This document shows positions 22,847 through 36,102 of a stretch of DNA of 64,000 bases, piece by piece (the stretch's first letter is position 1; each line of letters begins with the position of its first letter). Source of the DNA: Candidatus Peribacterales bacterium (lineage in GTDB: Bacteria > Patescibacteriota > Gracilibacteria > Peribacterales > Peribacteraceae); NCBI GenBank assembly GCA_020058765.1, contig JAGVDM010000004.1, positions 124,001 through 188,000 on the forward strand, written 5' to 3'. The notes below the pieces were generated by a model. The model saw nothing but the letters and a program-made list of their open reading frames with translations, was not told the origin of the DNA and did not search any database. A program made the translations under genes and the position numbers.

Positions 22847-23260
22847 ATGCGCTCTCTTCCTCTCACTATTACTGCTGTGGCAGTTCTCACAGTTTTTGCA
22901 GCTCCTGCTTTTGGAGAAGATCCATGTGCATCTGCCGGATTGTGGCCATCATGGATTGATCCTGTTTCTTGGTATACCGGTGAGACATGCACGCAGCCTT
23001 CCACGCCAGATCCTCTGAGTGCTACGAGTGCAACTCCTGTCGTATCAAGTTTCAAGCTTCGTGATCCGAATCTTGTGGTACGACCACTCTCTCGCCGCTT
23101 CCTGCGTGAAGGCGTGGAGGAATACGTGCCGGTGGAATTCAATCGGACATGGCAGGCACCACAGAGCGACGATGTACAAAATGACAGCACATCGCCAACA
23201 GATGCACCATCGCTCGATAACGTCTGGCCCGACTGGATTAGTCGTCCATACTGGCTCTAA
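22847..23260 (+). CDS. Small secreted protein with repeated WPxWI motif, 137 aa
   Basis: Signal peptide (LTITAVAVLTVFAAPAFG, cleavage after about residue 23) followed by a short mature protein of no family I know. An aromatic motif occurs twice: GLWPSWIDPVSW just after the signal peptide and NVWPDWISRPYW at the very C-terminus. A Ser/Thr/Pro-rich linker and an Arg-rich centre (VVRPLSRRFLREG) lie between them. Two mature Cys (DPCASAG and GETCTQP) could form a disulfide. The leader before the ATG is C/T-rich. The 3' end overlaps the convergent gene by 4 bp. Confidence 0.7.
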   Translation: MRSLPLTITAVAVLTVFAAPAFGEDPCASAGLWPSWIDPVSWYTGETCTQPSTPDPLSATSATPVVSSFKLRDPNLVVRPLSRRFLREGVEEYVPVEFNRTWQAPQSDDVQNDSTSPTDAPSLDNVWPDWISRPYWL

Positions 23261-24282
23261 GCCGCGCTCCGTGTTTCTGTGATCAGCAGTGTTCTGCGAG
23301 AACGTCGCAGCAGAATGGCGCCGCCGACAATGGCGAGTGTTGCTGCAATCCACGTTCCCGTTCCTGTTGCCGGCTGGCGTATTGGTTTGTGATGCTGAAT
23401 CGGCGGTAGGGGTGCTCCGCCATGCAATTCCGTTGGTGGAGGTCCACCAATAGGAGATGATGGAGGATTGAAGTTGGATCCTACGGTGTAGGGGTTGCGA
23501 GGGAGCTCTGCAGTGAGTGGTGGCAGCGCAGATGGTTCTTCATCCACAGGGAAGAGCTCTTCGTTGGGTTCTACTTCATTCAAGATAGGCAGTGGTTCTT
23601 CATTATCATTTCCAATAGTAGGTGGATTTGGAGCAGGAGTGGGTTCCACGATTGGCGGTGCGATTTCTTCTTCTACTAGTGGCTCTGTTTCTTCGCTGAT
23701 TGGCATAGGAGGTGTTCCTTCCTCCTGTAATGGTTCCTCAGGCACTGGCATAGGCTCAACAGGATTTTCTTCGATTGGCGGTGTGGGGGTTGTGCCTCCC
23801 TGTACAAGAATTTCCCCCATAGGGATGGAATCTCCAAACTCCGTATTGTTCCTGTAGATATGGCTTCCTGAAGGAGCATCTGAAGGTACCGTGAAACGTA
23901 CGGTATCTTGCGGTATAGCTGCTACATCCATACAAAAACCATTGGCGTCACATAGTGTGCTGGAGCCGATGATAATGACGTCATTTGATATATTCTCGAA
24001 CGCAATTTCCATTCCGGGCGATACAGTAACGCTCTGGGGATCAACTGTGCCATCTCTACCAATTGTGATAACAATTTCCGAAAGCAACTGTCCCTGCAGG
24101 TATTCCACTCCGTGTACAAATGCGAAGAGAATTGTGACCACCAATCCAATACCCACCAATGCGGCTGGGCGACGAGATGCTGGCTTCCAATCGTTGGGTT
24201 GAACCACGCCATCAGCCGTTGGCACCACATCTTTTTGCTGTGATGCTCCTGTTGATTGCCAATGCGGATGCATGGATTGCAT
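23257..24282 (-). CDS. Surface protein: cupredoxin-like domain, Pro/Glu linker, sortase-type tail
   Basis: Third gene of the dockerin/cohesin cluster. An N-terminal membrane helix (AALVGIGLVVTILFAFVHG, residues about 40-58) precedes a beta-sandwich starting DGTVDPQSVTVSPGMEIAF, which resembles cupredoxins. The usual copper-binding His/Cys loop is not evident; a Cys pair occurs in TLCDANGFCMD instead. A long Pro/Glu-rich stalk (residues about 150-300) follows, then QPATGTG, a hydrophobic helix (WIAATLAIVGGAILL) and RRSRR. That is the layout of a cell-wall sorting signal. It starts 18 bp after the preceding gene's stop, so it is probably cotranscribed with it. Confidence 0.8.
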   Translation of the reverse strand: MQSMHPHWQSTGASQQKDVVPTADGVVQPNDWKPASRRPAALVGIGLVVTILFAFVHGVEYLQGQLLSEIVITIGRDGTVDPQSVTVSPGMEIAFENISNDVIIIGSSTLCDANGFCMDVAAIPQDTVRFTVPSDAPSGSHIYRNNTEFGDSIPMGEILVQGGTTPTPPIEENPVEPMPVPEEPLQEEGTPPMPISEETEPLVEEEIAPPIVEPTPAPNPPTIGNDNEEPLPILNEVEPNEELFPVDEEPSALPPLTAELPRNPYTVGSNFNPPSSPIGGPPPTELHGGAPLPPIQHHKPIRQPATGTGTWIAATLAIVGGAILLRRSRRTLLITETRSAA

Positions 24283-24300
24283 GTGTGTATTTCTATGAAA

Positions 24301-26064
24301 TTACCGAGCCAGTGCCGTGATCTGACGCTTGGAGGCAAGCAAGGTTCCTACAACCGCAGAAAGCAGTGCCAGGAGGACGAAGGTGGTTCCCATGCCTGTT
24401 TCTCCAGGGAGCGTGCCGGCATCACCGGTAATCACAGGGTTTTCACCCGGAGCATCGGTGAGAATGCTTGCCACAAGAGGCGCTGTGGATGTGCCAGGAT
24501 TGCCAATTTCCATAGCTACTTCCTGGCTAAATGCAGTTTCCTCATCCTGTGCGCTCACTGCGCGCACAGCAAAGTAGTACGTCTCTCCTTCCGGTAGATT
24601 TCGAATGCTTAAGCTGGCATTCGTCGATGGTATGGTCTTGCGCTGCAGGTACTGTCCGGATGTTGATCCGTAATACACGTTGTACCCTTTCAGCTGGGAG
24701 GAACGGAGTGCGTCCCATTGCAGATATGCAGTACTTGCTTCTGTCGTTGCGCGCAGATTGCGTACCTGCAGGAGGGAGAATGCCGTACGATCGTTCTCGT
24801 ACATTTCCGGATCCTGGCATACGCCTTCTACACACATGTTGCTTTGGCACTGCGTACTAATCACGCATGTGCCTCCCACTGGAATCGTGCCAGCGCTTTG
24901 TACGGGTTGTGGCTGCTGCTCTGTAGCGCCTGCGCAAATACCGCCGGAACAGCTGTTTCCGCTTGGGCAGTCCGCATCTGTAAAGCAGGTGGTTGCAGAC
25001 GGTGCCGGTGCTGCGGAGCAGACCGATCCACTACAGAAGTTACTGGCACACTCAATGTTTGATGTGCATCCTGTGCCGTTCTCCAGTCCAGTCACGCCCG
25101 AGCATTGACCATTGCTGCATACCCCGCTTACGCACTGCGCGTCGCGACGGCACTCACCGCTATTCGGGATACGGAAATCATTTGCTCGGCAGAAACCTTC
25201 GTAGCACGTTGCGCTTTCGCATTGTCCATCAAAGGAGCACGCAAGGAGCTCTGCATCAGCTGAGGATGCAGCACAGACACCTGCTTCACATAGGGCACTC
25301 GAGCAATCGCCATTCTGAAGGCAGGCGCTCCCTGCAGGAAGTCCACTTCCAGACTGCGTTACTGGGGCAACCGGGGGTGTTCCCGCCGATGTTTTTAGCT
25401 GTACAAAAAGTGAGCCGGGCTCCTGCGCCATAGCGTAGGTTTCGGTTCCTGCCTGGTCAGACAAAAGGAACGTGTGTCCGTCGCGCTGCACATCAAAGAA
25501 GCTCAGTACGGTTCCGGGCAATACCTCTTTTGATACGGTGAACGTAATCGTTGCGACGTGTATCCAATATGAAGATGGATAGGATTTGTCAGATGCATTC
25601 ACCTGGATCTTTGCAAAACCGTTCTTGGGAGCGAAGTCGGCTTCGCCCGGGATGATTTCCGGAAACAGAGTCTGGTTGATCGAAATGGTTTTTCCTTCCA
25701 GGACAGTTGCATCGTAGCTAATCCAAGCACGTACACCAGAAATGGGTTTCTTTTCAGGGTTGTGCACAACAAGGTCAAGTGTGATCTCCTGTCCTTGGCT
25801 AAAGGGGGGTGTTTGCAGTGTCTGTGGATCACGAACGTCAAACGGTCCACACAAGGTGGGGTCTGCCCCCGGAGTCCAATCCGGTGGGGGTACGGGTCCG
25901 TAAATCCATTCTGCACCGCTATACCCGGGTTCGCAGTGTGGTCGCAATTCCAATGACGCACCAGGCGTTGCCTGAGCCTGCGCAGCCGGGGTAAGCACTA
26001 GCCCAATCACCACCGCACTCATTGCGGATAGGGTGGCCAGAACATGACGAGAACACATGTGCAT
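24301..26064 (-). CDS. Secreted cohesin-like / Cys-repeat / FN3 surface protein with sortase-type tail
   Basis: Signal peptide (AVVIGLVLTPAAQAQA) followed by a cohesin-like beta-sandwich (QGQEITLDLVVHNPEKKPIS, AWISYDATVLEGKTI, IHVATITFTVSKEVLPGTVL, residues about 75-220). About six Cys-rich repeats of the C-x(5)-C-x(4)-C-x(4)-C type follow (residues about 240-430), then one fibronectin III domain (about 450-545). The C-terminus is LPGETGMG, a hydrophobic helix and SKR, resembling a sorting signal. The ATG at 26064 lies 1 bp past the stop of the dockerin gene, implying coupled expression. Frame upstream of this ATG is ignored because it overlaps the dockerin gene. Confidence 0.8.
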   Translation of the reverse strand: MHMCSRHVLATLSAMSAVVIGLVLTPAAQAQATPGASLELRPHCEPGYSGAEWIYGPVPPPDWTPGADPTLCGPFDVRDPQTLQTPPFSQGQEITLDLVVHNPEKKPISGVRAWISYDATVLEGKTISINQTLFPEIIPGEADFAPKNGFAKIQVNASDKSYPSSYWIHVATITFTVSKEVLPGTVLSFFDVQRDGHTFLLSDQAGTETYAMAQEPGSLFVQLKTSAGTPPVAPVTQSGSGLPAGSACLQNGDCSSALCEAGVCAASSADAELLACSFDGQCESATCYEGFCRANDFRIPNSGECRRDAQCVSGVCSNGQCSGVTGLENGTGCTSNIECASNFCSGSVCSAAPAPSATTCFTDADCPSGNSCSGGICAGATEQQPQPVQSAGTIPVGGTCVISTQCQSNMCVEGVCQDPEMYENDRTAFSLLQVRNLRATTEASTAYLQWDALRSSQLKGYNVYYGSTSGQYLQRKTIPSTNASLSIRNLPEGETYYFAVRAVSAQDEETAFSQEVAMEIGNPGTSTAPLVASILTDAPGENPVITGDAGTLPGETGMGTTFVLLALLSAVVGTLLASKRQITALAR

Positions 26065-26065
26065 A

Positions 26066-26395
26066 TTAGCGTGAGGCAATGATGTGAAGTGCGCGGATTG
26101 CATCGTCAATAGTCAGCTTGCCGTCTCCATTGAAGTCGGCGATCAAATCGTCAATGCCGGCCTCTCTATATCCTTGAATTGTTTCCAAGAGCAAGCGAAC
26201 GTCATCGGTGTCCAATACGGCATTCCCATTGAGGTCACCTTGCACGTCATCGCTACCAGCTGTGATGAGCGCAACGGGTTGTACCGAACCAGATGTAAGC
26301 ATGCCGGCGGAAAAGGATCCGCCAACGCAGGCGATCCCTAGGAGGAGAGTGAGTGCACCCCGATGTGTACTTCTGCGTTGGAGAGATGTGAACAT
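26066..26395 (-). CDS. Stand-alone type I dockerin protein, 109 aa
   Basis: An N-terminal signal or anchor segment (ALTLLLGIACVGGSFSAG) and a short spacer lead to a dockerin with both calcium-binding F-hand repeats: GDLNGNAVLDTDDVRLLL and ADFNGDGKLTIDDAIRAL (residues about 52-107). Known dockerins plug into cohesin domains. Here the dockerin has no catalytic module and sits directly before a gene for a cohesin-like protein, suggesting a matched pair. The promoter is strong and near-leaderless. Confidence 0.88.
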   Translation of the reverse strand: MFTSLQRRSTHRGALTLLLGIACVGGSFSAGMLTSGSVQPVALITAGSDDVQGDLNGNAVLDTDDVRLLLETIQGYREAGIDDLIADFNGDGKLTIDDAIRALHIIASR

Positions 26396-26403
26396 ATCGC
26401 TTC

Positions 26404-26432
26404 ATTATAGGCTTTTCGCGAATTCCGGGCAA
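26404..26432 (-). promoter_or_regulatory. Promoter of the dockerin/cohesin cluster
   Basis: On the minus strand TTGCCC (26432-26427), a 17-bp spacer and TATAAT (26409-26404) end 8 nt before the dockerin ATG. Confidence 0.8.
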
Positions 26433-27929: not shown

Positions 27930-29462
27930 CTAGTCCTTCTTCAATAGCGGAATCACCAGCAGTGTCACGAGTGTAAGGAAGGTGAATACCGTGAGTGCCG
28001 ACACAATGATAATGATGGGCGGCAGGGCAGGTAAACGATCCAGGAGTGCGTTGAATGCAGAAGGAGCATCTCCCTCCTCGGACTGAGGCATGCCAACAAT
28101 TGCTGAACCTGAACCTTGCGATGGGGTTGATGGACCTTCGAGCGAAATACGCTCGGGTTCGGAGCACAACGCGCTGCTCAGCAATGCGGCGGTAATTGCC
28201 GGAGTGCTCATTTGCCAGCGATCAGCAAACCTCTGCGCAATGGTTTCTACCTGATCTCGGAATGCAACGGGGTCTTGCATGCCACGCTCCTGCACACGGC
28301 AGAGCATACGCAGCTTCGCCTCTAGGCTCAGCGCAGACCCGTCTGTTACGCTTTCTTCCGATGATGAAGCCTCTACCGTTGTTGTAGATGTTGCTGATGG
28401 CGTACGTTCCGTAGATTGGCTGCTTGTTCGCGGCCGTCGCGTAGATGATGAGGATGACGTAGAAGGCGCATTGGGTGCAGGAGTGGTGATTGGCGAGCTC
28501 GATTCTGAAACATTTGCGCCGCCGATTGGCTGCACATTCATCTGGATTGGGCATGCTGTACGGGATTCCAGCACAGAAACGATAGTAATCGGCGATACAG
28601 TGAGTCTCTCGGCCAATCGTTCAGCCAATCGAACACGAGTAATACTGAGTGTTCCTGGGCGCAGAAAGCGATCTTGCACCTTACAGAGCAATCGGCCATC
28701 GCTCACAGGAAGCTCGTGTAGTACCGCTTGTCCATTCCCTGTAACTCCGGCAGGGCCGCTTGTAATTCGCTCGAGCAGATTTGCGCGAGAATTGCCGTTC
28801 GTGCGTTCTTGTATAGCCGCGCGTCGTGCCGCTTCGCGTGGGGCGAGTGTCTCGCTCGTCGTGGTACGAGGAGTGCGCACTGTAGGGGCTTCTTCTGCTT
28901 CTTGTGTGCCATCCTCGTAGCGAATAGTGAAGTAGCATAAATCACTGTTATCGTCGTAGTCTTCATCTGGCCAACTTCCCCAGAGCACAGATGCCCCTGG
29001 AGGCACGGTGATACCGGTGCGCAGCGCATCTACAACACGAATGGCGTTGGTGTCCGCATACCCTCCGTCGCTGAGCTCTACAACATTGCCCTGTGCATTG
29101 AGGAACTGGAGCAGGGGAGTGTGCTGGGGTACGCGAATGGTATCTCTATTCCCAGCTATGCAGTCCACACGCTGTGTGCCATTGAGTACAGAGCCGCCAA
29201 GACCACCAATTTCCAACCGCTGGCCAGCAATGAGATCTGTAAGCAGCACAGACTCGGTATTCGTGTTGCCTGCACCTGATCCTTGCCACTTTTCCTCGGG
29301 ATTGCACCCGTCGCACGCAAGTTTCGGCTGCCAATCACCATGGATTCGTACAGTCGCACTCGCTGCGTCTGCGGTGGGTGCTGCAAAAAGCGCAATCGCA
29401 AAGGCGAACGTTGCACCAACTGTGAGGGCAGATGCAGATAGGCGTGGAGCGAATGATCTCAT
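27930..29462 (-). CDS. Secreted, membrane-anchored protein with a duplicated Cys-bounded helical domain
   Basis: Signal peptide (TFAFAIALFAAPTADA, to about residue 33), then a beta-rich N-terminal domain with a Cys pair (ACDGCNPEEKWQ). Two related helical units of about 47 residues follow, one starting LLCKVQDRFL and ending ESRTAC, the other starting MLCRVQERGM and ending SSALC. A Ser/Thr/Arg-rich low-complexity linker separates them. The C-terminal helix (IIIIVSALTVFTFLTLVTLL) plus LKKD anchors it in the membrane; no TG sorting motif is present. Family unknown. The leader before the ATG is long and C/T-rich. Confidence 0.75.
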   Translation of the reverse strand: MRSFAPRLSASALTVGATFAFAIALFAAPTADAASATVRIHGDWQPKLACDGCNPEEKWQGSGAGNTNTESVLLTDLIAGQRLEIGGLGGSVLNGTQRVDCIAGNRDTIRVPQHTPLLQFLNAQGNVVELSDGGYADTNAIRVVDALRTGITVPPGASVLWGSWPDEDYDDNSDLCYFTIRYEDGTQEAEEAPTVRTPRTTTSETLAPREAARRAAIQERTNGNSRANLLERITSGPAGVTGNGQAVLHELPVSDGRLLCKVQDRFLRPGTLSITRVRLAERLAERLTVSPITIVSVLESRTACPIQMNVQPIGGANVSESSSPITTPAPNAPSTSSSSSTRRPRTSSQSTERTPSATSTTTVEASSSEESVTDGSALSLEAKLRMLCRVQERGMQDPVAFRDQVETIAQRFADRWQMSTPAITAALLSSALCSEPERISLEGPSTPSQGSGSAIVGMPQSEEGDAPSAFNALLDRLPALPPIIIIVSALTVFTFLTLVTLLVIPLLKKD

Positions 29463-33764: not shown

Positions 33765-33793
33765 TTGTTCCTCTCTGCGCACCCTGCTATTCT
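33765..33793 (+). promoter_or_regulatory. Promoter of the SLH-protein gene, near-leaderless
   Basis: TTGTTC (33765-33770), 17 bp, then TATTCT (33788-33793), which ends 10 nt before the ATG at 33804. It is divergent from the carB promoter, with 45 bp between the two -35 boxes. Confidence 0.7.
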
Positions 33794-33803
33794 GCACTCC
33801 GGC

Positions 33804-34628
33804 ATGGTTCGACCCATTTCTTTCTTCGCTGCCGGATCGCTCGCACTCCTTACAGTGCAAGTGGCTCTAGCTGCTGTTACGCCAGAGTCGTTCCTAGAGA
33901 ACCTTGATGAGTACGGCGCTGAGCTCACGTCCACAGCTGCAGATCAAACACAGCTTTCAGAAGACCGTGCGTACGAACATACATCCGGATTCTTCCCTGC
34001 ACTTGCAGAGGAAGCCAGTTCCCAAACCGGTACTGGAGCAGAGATCGGTTCTACAGCACTATTCACCGATGTACCGACGGGCGCGTGGTTTGCCCGATAT
34101 GCTTCGGATATGGCAGAGCAGCGTATCATGGAGGGGTACAAAGACGCTGCTGGGCAGCCGCTGGGGACATTCGGCCCCGCCGATCCGGTAACTATTGAGC
34201 AAATTGCCAAGATGGCAGTGATCGCTGCAAGAGTTGATCAAACGAAATGTCCTGCTTCCCCCAAGAATGCCGAGGCAGGTTCTCGTTGGTCGGCGCAATT
34301 CATTGCGTGCGCCGAACAGCTTGGCTGGCAGGTGTTCGCAGACGGCGCGGTAGATCCTTCTCGATCAGCACTTCGTAGCGAGGTGGTTACGACTGTTCTG
34401 GAGGCATTCGGTCGTGAACTGGAGCCCGCAAGCGGCACGCTCTTCCAGGATGTGAGCTCTACAATGCCAGCCCGTCATGCCATTGAAACAGCTGCAAGAG
34501 ATGGCATTGTATCTGGCTATACCAATTCCGAAGGGAACCCCACGGGGTTCTTTGGCCCGTTTGACAACGTCAATCGTGCAGAGACTGCGAAGATCTTCTC
34601 GCTCGCGTTGGATACGTACGGATTATAA
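33804..34628 (+). CDS. Secreted SLH-domain protein, 274 aa
   Basis: Signal peptide (FFAAGSLALLTVQVALA, cleaved after about residue 21) followed by three S-layer homology modules. These start at ALFTDVPTGAWFARYASDM, WSAQFIACAEQLGWQVF and GTLFQDVSSTMPARHAIE, each with its glycine-turn (EGYKDAAG, FADGAVDPSR, SGYTNSEGNPTGFFG). SLH domains bind secondary cell-wall polymers in monoderms. There is no other domain, so this could be a small S-layer or wall-spacer protein. Two mature Cys occur (TKCPASP, FIACAEQ). The start is fixed by the promoter and the signal peptide. Confidence 0.9.
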   Translation: MVRPISFFAAGSLALLTVQVALAAVTPESFLENLDEYGAELTSTAADQTQLSEDRAYEHTSGFFPALAEEASSQTGTGAEIGSTALFTDVPTGAWFARYASDMAEQRIMEGYKDAAGQPLGTFGPADPVTIEQIAKMAVIAARVDQTKCPASPKNAEAGSRWSAQFIACAEQLGWQVFADGAVDPSRSALRSEVVTTVLEAFGRELEPASGTLFQDVSSTMPARHAIETAARDGIVSGYTNSEGNPTGFFGPFDNVNRAETAKIFSLALDTYGL

Positions 34629-34776: not shown

Positions 34777-36102
34777 TTAGATCGGTAACATCTCCAGATT
34801 GAGTTCGCTATCTGGTCGCTGGGTATGTTCACCTACCTCCATTGCCTCTCCGCTCACAGGGTCGATCTCTTCTGCAACCAGAATTAGGCGGCGTAGAGTT
34901 GTGCCAACAGGCGTACACGTCATAAGTGTTGCAAGTCGCTTATTGATGGGCTGATCGAGAACTCCAACATCACTCGGCGACACTTCTTTTTTACTCCGAA
35001 CAATGTAGCGATGCTGATCGCCGCCGTAGTACACATAGTACTCGTCACCCGGTTCCAAATTGTGCAATCGTGCGAATACCGTCTTGTAGTTTCCAGATGC
35101 CCATGGGTAGTACGAGCTGTGACCCGTTACGAAGAAGTTTCCTGCCTGCCCTGGGCGCGCGGTACCTGGATAATGCACCACACCCTGCTCTAGTGCCTGT
35201 TGGATGTCTTCCTCCACTTTCGTCCAATCCTCAGCCAGCAGCGATGCGTACGACGGAGTGACAAGTGGAATGTTGAGCCCAAGCTTTGGAATGATGAGTC
35301 GGTTTTCCGGCGGGCCCACTGGCGGCAACGCTGCAAGTAAACTGCCTTCGTGCTCGCCGGCTGTGGCTAGAGCAGGGCTTCGCAGCAGTTTTTCTTTGAG
35401 TTGTGTGTCGATGGCAGTTGTTTGTTCTTGTACGGCTTGCGCGGTGCTGAGTGGATCAATTTTCTCCTCCAAGATCTGCCAGAAGCTTTCGTAGTTCAGC
35501 GCACTAAAGAGTCCCCCAAAAATCAGAGCGAAGGTTCCTCCAAATCGAACGACATCCAGTGTGAACAGTGTGACACGACTGTATTTCCTTGGTGCCTTTT
35601 TTGGTGTGATGATCCACACCGGTTGGAGCAAGAAGGCCTTGAACCCGCGAAGGAAGCCGCCCAGACCCTGACCGGCGCTCGTGAATACGCCAGATACATC
35701 CTGCATGCTTGTTTTGTATTGTGTTGAACTTTCCAGTGCCAGTGATCGCAGTGCTTTCTGGAGCTCCTTGGTTGGAGGTGTTTTTATTGCACGATTCTTT
35801 GGCATAAAAGTCACCTTTTCCTTTTCCAGAAGGTCTTCACGCGAAATCTCGAGCTCGGTAACCCATGCAGGAATCTCTTCTGATTGCGTTGTTGCTTCTA
35901 TTCTCTCTTCCATCACAACGGTCTCAGGCTCCTCTGTAACGCTCTGCTCCATAGGAGTTTCAACAATCTCCTCCTCAAATGGCAGGATGATGTTTCCATC
36001 TGCGTCGTACATTGCTCGATGTTGACCACGTGTGTCGCGCATGAATGTATCCGGATATTGTACCAGAAAATCCCGTGTGAGGGGAGGGGATATACTACCC
36101 AT
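34777..36102 (-). CDS. Sortase with long cytoplasmic N-terminal region
   Basis: Membrane transpeptidase that attaches proteins carrying a sorting signal to the cell envelope. The catalytic triad is visible: TGHSSYYPWA (His near residue 327), TLMTCTPVGTTLRRL (Cys near 394, Arg 8-9 residues on). The TLxTCTPxG style is closest to class C/D sortases. A membrane helix lies near residues 190-210, preceded by about 185 mostly polar residues, unusually long for a sortase. It follows mnmA by 23 bp on the same strand. A later ATG at 36045 is an alternative start. Candidate substrates are the proteins at 23257 and 24301. Confidence 0.92.
   Translation of the reverse strand: MGSISPPLTRDFLVQYPDTFMRDTRGQHRAMYDADGNIILPFEEEIVETPMEQSVTEEPETVVMEERIEATTQSEEIPAWVTELEISREDLLEKEKVTFMPKNRAIKTPPTKELQKALRSLALESSTQYKTSMQDVSGVFTSAGQGLGGFLRGFKAFLLQPVWIITPKKAPRKYSRVTLFTLDVVRFGGTFALIFGGLFSALNYESFWQILEEKIDPLSTAQAVQEQTTAIDTQLKEKLLRSPALATAGEHEGSLLAALPPVGPPENRLIIPKLGLNIPLVTPSYASLLAEDWTKVEEDIQQALEQGVVHYPGTARPGQAGNFFVTGHSSYYPWASGNYKTVFARLHNLEPGDEYYVYYGGDQHRYIVRSKKEVSPSDVGVLDQPINKRLATLMTCTPVGTTLRRLILVAEEIDPVSGEAMEVGEHTQRPDSELNLEMLPI

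What the first reader, a model, noticed from the sequence alone, without database searches (positions are those of the whole stretch)
23257..26432. Dockerin and cohesin-like proteins encoded back to back, with sortase-type tails
A 109-aa secreted protein that is little more than a complete dockerin (two F-hands) is followed, 1 bp after its stop, by a secreted cohesin-like/Cys-repeat/FN3 protein, then a cupredoxin-like stalk protein. The last two end in TG-hydrophobic-basic tails, and a sortase is encoded at 34777. In cellulosomes, dockerins carry enzymes onto cohesins. Here the dockerin carries nothing, and no carbohydrate-active enzyme is in the cluster. This suggests a calcium-dependent surface plug, adaptor or assembly module rather than a cellulosome, possibly a new use of the pair in a tiny genome.
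Basis: partly seen in the sequence, partly recalled or inferred. Interest (0 to 1): 0.75.

Follow-up and report, generated by a model that had tools for sequence, protein, structure and literature searches.

The report
Cargo-less dockerin paired with a cohesin
A family of tiny, uncultured bacteria keeps, in nearly every member examined, two adjacent genes for the two halves of a calcium-dependent protein clasp known from cellulose-digesting machines, but the plug half has lost whatever it once carried, so the clasp probably fastens the cell's own surface proteins.

Summary
The window is from Candidatus Peribacteraceae (Patescibacteria). Gene 26066-26395(-) is a dockerin and little else. One base later, 24301-26064(-) carries a true cohesin: AlphaFold model pLDDT 88, and all 50 best PDB matches are cohesins. 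The third protein is cupredoxin-like.

The cassette dockerin>cohesin>stalk is conserved beside holA. The cohesin protein is in 73 of 74 family genomes. Of 55 loci read, 53 have a mini-dockerin, one a full-size version, one none. Calcium ligands are invariant. The home genome has no other detectable dockerin.

Why it 'carries nothing': in one divergent member the same slot holds a 565-aa protein whose N-terminal anchor and C-terminal dockerin match the two ends of the mini-protein; a sister family has a similar 559-aa protein.

Same-strand neighbouring dockerin and cohesin genes recur across Patescibacteria (20 of 34 genomes with listed hits to both; about one pair expected by chance).

Most likely a calcium-dependent surface clasp reduced to anchor plus plug. 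Binding was not shown. The sortase link is weak: no LPxTG, nearest sortase 8 kb away. New variant of non-cellulosomal cohesin-dockerin pairs; interest 0.6.

The parts
26066..26395 (-). mini-dockerin protein (109 aa): N-terminal hydrophobic segment, short conserved linker, dockerin
   Evidence: conserved at 53 of 55 family loci read
26297..26362 (-). hydrophobic N-terminal segment with invariant F28 and G31 (anchor or signal peptide)
   Evidence: F28 and G31 in 49 of 49; AxA cleavage-type motif in 6 of 50 against 24 of 53 for the cohesin protein
26201..26236 (-). dockerin calcium loop 1 (residues 54-65)
   Evidence: D54 and D65 invariant in 49
26102..26137 (-). dockerin calcium loop 2 (residues 87-98)
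   Evidence: D87, T95, D98 invariant; D91 is D45/N4
24301..26064 (-). cohesin / Cys-repeat / FN3 surface protein (587 aa)
   Evidence: homologue in 73 of 74 family genomes
25387..25857 (-). cohesin domain (residues 70-226); invariant C44 and C72 lie at or before its N-terminal edge
   Evidence: Pfam Cohesin; AF2 and Foldseek
24805..25347 (-). Cys-rich repeats (lineage-variable linker; Ser-rich in many relatives)
24505..24783 (-). fibronectin type III domain, the best conserved part
24304..24417 (-). C-terminal PGETG - transmembrane - KRQ anchor/sorting signal
23257..24282 (-). stalk protein (341 aa): N-terminal TM, cupredoxin-like domain, Pro/Glu-rich stalk, PATGTG-TM tail
34777..36102 (-). 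sortase, one of four in the genome; possible but unproven processing enzyme
   Evidence: PF04203 2.3e-24

Best explanation
The two genes encode the two halves of a calcium-dependent cell-surface clasp. The cohesin protein is secreted, held at the envelope by its C-terminal TM/sorting tail, and displays an N-terminal cohesin and an FN3 domain. The mini-dockerin is probably held in the membrane by its uncleaved N-terminal helix, plugs that cohesin 1:1, and so fixes the free end of the cohesin-FN3 protein to the cell. It is the reduced descendant of a ~560-aa membrane-anchored surface protein ending in the same dockerin, whose extracellular cargo was lost while the anchor and the plug were kept. 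Shown here: cohesin fold (predicted model plus fold search), dockerin by profile, operon-like adjacency, family-wide conservation, invariant calcium-loop residues, matching ends in the large form, one-to-one gene content in the home genome. Inferred: the binding itself, its calcium dependence, non-cleavage of the N-terminus, the direction of the size change, a role in surface architecture or attachment.
For: Cohesin fold and dockerin profile matches. Same-strand neighbours with gaps of about 1-35 bp in most relatives. Cohesin protein in 73 of 74 family genomes; mini-dockerin at 53 of 55 loci read. Calcium-loop residues invariant. No other dockerin found in the home genome and one over-cut-off cohesin. 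The mini-dockerin profile matches the 565-aa protein of L196 at both ends, residues 14-57 (1e-4) and 495-564 (1.7e-14), in the same slot next to holA; the rest of that protein matches nothing else in the family. Sister-family L197 has a 559-aa dockerin protein whose last 88 residues match it (33%, 1e-10). Dockerin and cohesin genes are often near each other and co-directional across the phylum.
Against: No binding evidence. The fused AF2 model (pLDDT 83.9, pTM 0.62) folded each module well, but the tool gave neither interface scores nor coordinates. The co-variation test does not single out the cohesin domain: partial correlation of dockerin with cohesin 0.323, with FN3 0.320. Signal-peptide cleavage is not excluded. 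L071 keeps the cohesin protein without a dockerin. Neighbouring-gene and cohesin trees place the large-form genome differently.
Confidence: 0.52

Rival explanations
1. Removable cap: the signal peptide is cleaved and the ~70-aa dockerin is a free soluble plug that occupies the cohesin until calcium drops or a partner displaces it.
For: The protein is little more than signal-like segment plus dockerin; the region after the hydrophobic run has small residues that could be cut.
Against: Classical AxA sites are rare in it (6 of 50) compared with the neighbouring cohesin protein (24 of 53); F28 and G31 inside the hydrophobic run are invariant, unusual for a disposable signal peptide. Mini-dockerins elsewhere in the phylum look membrane-anchored (L174, L177).
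Confidence: 0.2
2. Cell-to-cell or host attachment: the cohesin binds dockerins of another cell, or dockerin and cohesin of neighbouring cells bind each other.
For: Dockerin and FN3 envelope proteins are essential in the epibiont Southlakia epibionticum and were proposed to act on host-cell glycans (PMC10633639).
Against: A co-directional, adjacent gene for a dockerin in the same genome is the simpler partner; nothing is known of the partner cells.
Confidence: 0.13
3. The mini-dockerin is a calcium sensor or binds something other than the neighbouring cohesin.
For: Generic EF-hand models also match weakly; co-variation does not point to the cohesin domain.
Against: Dockerins are prominent among the profile's best matches; a cohesin is encoded next door in nearly all species.
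Confidence: 0.1
4. Vestige: a decaying remnant of a cargo protein with no present function.
For: It appears to be an internally shortened form of a larger protein; one genome has lost it.
Against: Seven invariant residues in 49 sequences, five of them in calcium loops, and retention at 53 of 55 loci mean purifying selection.
Confidence: 0.05

Closest known systems
Non-cellulosomal cohesin-dockerin pairs (Archaeoglobus fulgidus; review Peer et al. 2009, cited not read; ANME archaea in PMC9012536)
   Same: Cohesin and dockerin modules in organisms without cellulosomes; A. fulgidus cohesin 2xdh is among the fold matches.
   Different: Here one bare dockerin and one clear cohesin as a fixed adjacent pair, near-universal in a bacterial family; ANME systems are variable and can carry several cohesins per protein.
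Cellulosomal anchoring scaffoldin ScaE of Ruminococcus flavefaciens (sortase-anchored cohesin, PMC12484212)
   Same: A surface-anchored cohesin; ScaE cohesin (2zf9) is among the fold matches of the fused model.
   Different: No scaffoldin, no dockerin-bearing enzyme, no LPxTG; the partner dockerin carries nothing.
Cohesin-FN3 modules of Clostridium perfringens glycoside hydrolase GH84C (2w1n)
   Same: Cohesin and FN3 in one chain.
   Different: Those belong to an enzyme; here a wall/membrane-anchored protein with Cys-rich or Ser-rich linker.
Essential dockerin protein SEML1_0315 of Southlakia epibionticum (Saccharibacteria, PMC10633639)
   Same: Envelope dockerin protein in the same phylum.
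   Different: Not compared by sequence here; the paper does not mention a cohesin.

Membership tests
Dockerin | Two F-hand repeats with calcium ligands | tested here: met
   Invariant loop positions; profile hits to solved dockerins
Dockerin | Single-sequence match over Pfam Dockerin_1 cut-off | tested here: not met
   15.7 vs 22.9 bits for the window copy; several relatives hit PF00404 at E 1e-4 to 1e-8
Cohesin | Cohesin beta-sandwich fold | tested here: met
   AF2 and Foldseek, 50 of 50 best matches are cohesins
Cohesin | Pfam Cohesin cut-off | tested here: met
   24.4 vs 24.1 bits, marginal
Cohesin-dockerin pair | Calcium-dependent high-affinity binding | not testable with these tools
   Fused model gave no interface scores
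Cellulosome | Scaffoldin with several cohesins | tested here: not met
   One over-cut-off cohesin in the home genome; weaker hits at C9 and C6 not resolved
Cellulosome | Dockerin-bearing carbohydrate-active enzymes | tested here: not met
   No other dockerin found in the genome
Sortase substrates | LPxTG - TM - basic tail | tested here: inconclusive
   TM and basic tail present; motif GxTG / PxTG, LPxTG in 0 of 53 cohesin proteins; four sortases in the genome
Cupredoxin (stalk protein) | Plastocyanin-like domain | tested here: met
   Family profile 4e-10 to plastocyanin; Cupredoxin_1 in 17 of 29 members
Cupredoxin (stalk protein) | Complete copper ligand set | not tested
   Consensus suggests loss of C-terminal ligands; not analysed

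The most novel reading that the evidence does not exclude
Patescibacteria as a phylum use neighbour-encoded cohesin-dockerin pairs as a general non-covalent way to hold surface proteins on the cell, and Peribacteraceae have reduced this to a bare membrane-anchored clasp as a fixed part of their envelope.
Probability: 0.33. Interest if true: 0.75.

Novelty: new variant of a known kind. Interest (0 to 1): 0.6.

Why it matters
Patescibacteria are a very large bacterial group whose surface biology and partner attachment are almost unknown. A conserved, self-contained calcium clasp gives a defined, cheaply testable two-protein system. It also shows a cohesin-dockerin pair persisting across some 40 genera after its cargo was apparently lost. 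If the phylum-wide pairing holds, it offers a way to predict which surface proteins are docked to which anchors in hundreds of uncultured lineages, and a context for the essential dockerin protein of Southlakia epibionticum.

Tried and rejected
Cellulosome: rejected (no second dockerin, no multi-cohesin scaffold, no enzyme). Chance resemblance: rejected (fold search, invariant residues, synteny). Vestige: unlikely (purifying selection). Co-variation (mirror-tree) test: uninformative; dockerin correlates equally with cohesin and FN3. Fused read-through AF2 model to see the interface: modules folded but no PAE or coordinates were given, so nothing is concluded about docking. The whole-alignment scan with A2 had no conserved stretch; a subset (A3) worked. 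Dating the cargo loss: the cohesin tree puts the large-form genome L066/L196 outside all mini-dockerin members (SH-aLRT 96, but long branches meet), while neighbouring genes put it near the L071/L058/L077 group (92), so a single ancestral loss is likely but unproven. Literature: no report of this pair was found in the held library (searches; the Peribacteria genome paper has no mention); subscription papers and Peer 2009 were not readable.

Full report
OBSERVATION. The three ORFs exist as described. The dockerin gene ends at 26066, the cohesin ATG is at 26064, with one base between. The window is G000:C6:124001-188000 of a 1.17-Mb genome. Named relatives are Candidatus Peribacteraceae/Peribacterales, Patescibacteria.

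MODULES. Pfam puts the 587-aa protein just over the Cohesin cut-off (24.4 vs 24.1 bits), with an FN3 domain at 5.7e-9 and Cys repeats. An AF2 model of residues 37-230 from 36 sequences has pLDDT 88.1 and pTM 0.83. The 50 best PDB matches are all cohesins, probability 1.00. The dockerin is below the Pfam cut-off as a single sequence, but its family profile hits solved dockerins. The residues invariant in 49 sequences are F28, G31 and D54, D65, D87, T95, D98; the last five are F-hand calcium-loop positions. The third protein is cupredoxin-like.

CONSERVATION. The cohesin protein is found in 73 of 74 family genomes. In 55 loci read, spread over most genera of the family, the order dockerin > cohesin > stalk, next to divergent holA and near greA and carB, is kept almost throughout. 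Fifty-three have a mini-dockerin (105-147 aa), two of them found only on inspection (L074, L089). L066 has a full-size version and L071 none. In most the cohesin ATG lies about 1-35 bp after the dockerin stop. The home genome has no other detectable dockerin and one over-cut-off cohesin, so the natural partner of each is the other.

WHERE THE CARGO WENT. In L066/L196, a divergent member of the family, the slot next to holA holds a 565-aa protein. The mini-dockerin profile matches its N-terminus (14-57, 1e-4, including the SFxxG motif) and its C-terminus (495-564, 1.7e-14), with about 440 residues between. Those residues match nothing else in the family: all other hits cover only about 484-565 and lie in open frames of 106-157 aa. 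A sister-family genome (L116/L197) has a 559-aa dockerin protein whose last 88 residues match it. There, as in L196, the dockerin protein precedes a large Ig-repeat protein (1757 and 1320 aa, homologous at 1e-41), a small lipoprotein-like cohesin, the cohesin-FN3 protein and a stalk protein. The 1320-aa protein is in 1 of 74 family genomes. The simplest reading is that the large operon is ancestral and Peribacteraceae stripped it to anchor plus dockerin. The two trees disagree on where the large-form genome sits, so timing and direction are inferred.

WIDER PATTERN. Among 380 Patescibacteria genomes, 112 hit PF00963 and 149 hit PF00404 at E <= 0.001. In the listed hits (the lists are truncated) 34 genomes have both. 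Twenty of these have a dockerin and a cohesin within 8 kb on the same strand, and none of the listed pairs within 8 kb is on opposite strands. About 1.2 same-strand pairs would be expected among 149 possible combinations if placement were random in 1-Mb genomes (rough). Some are modules of one protein; many are separate genes, usually dockerin first. Other small anchored dockerins exist (L174, L177), though the neighbours there are not recognised as cohesins by Pfam.

MECHANISM. A bare dockerin next to its only cohesin implies that the plug itself is the function. Because the N-terminal segment has invariant residues and rarely an AxA site, I favour an uncleaved anchor, so that the dockerin pins the N-terminal cohesin of a protein already held by its C-terminal tail. 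A secreted cap is the main rival. Binding was not shown. A read-through fusion of the two genes from L132, made only so that both could be modelled in one chain, gave well-folded modules (pLDDT about 95 in each core) and pTM 0.62, with no interface scores. A co-variation test was not discriminating. The sortase part of the original idea is plausible only in outline: tails with GxTG/PxTG, TM and basic end are conserved, but the motif is not LPxTG, and the genome has four sortases, none in the cassette.

KNOWN OR NEW. Cohesin-dockerin pairs outside cellulosomes are known in archaea and bacteria (cited in PMC9012536 and PMC10066038). A dockerin protein is essential in the epibiont Southlakia epibionticum (PMC10633639). 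I found no report of a family-wide bare-dockerin/cohesin pair, or of phylum-wide adjacency, in the searchable library. I call this a new variant of a known kind.

Noticed in passing
23257-24282 (-): Stalk protein has an N-terminal TM, a plastocyanin-like domain apparently lacking some copper ligands, a Pro/Glu stalk and a PxTG tail; it travels with the pair in most of the family.
   Followed up: partly
L196:1780-8037 and L197:4859-13643: Larger, ancestral-looking operons with a lipoprotein-like second cohesin and 1320/1757-aa Ig-repeat proteins that also carry a weak dockerin-like match near the C-terminus.
   Followed up: partly
L174:2885-3900 (-), L173:2910-3882 (+): In another Patescibacteria family a ~100-aa anchored dockerin overlaps or follows a ~235-aa secreted protein with a TGPE-TM tail; the partner is not recognised as a cohesin by Pfam.
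   Followed up: partly
L175:3881-4276 (-), L177:3605-3982 (+): Membrane-anchored mini-dockerins (125-131 aa) next to a large protein with a TM at each end, not a recognised cohesin.
   Followed up: partly
L090 (own genome C9:1-20000): 2315-aa and 646-aa frames with weak cohesin-model hits (E 0.0016 and 0.22); possible further surface proteins.
   Followed up: no
33765-34628 (+): SLH-domain protein near the sortase and tRNA-Leu, suggesting S-layer anchoring in the same organism.
   Followed up: no
27930-29462 (-): 510-aa secreted Ser/Thr-rich protein with a C-terminal TM and no Pfam match.
   Followed up: no
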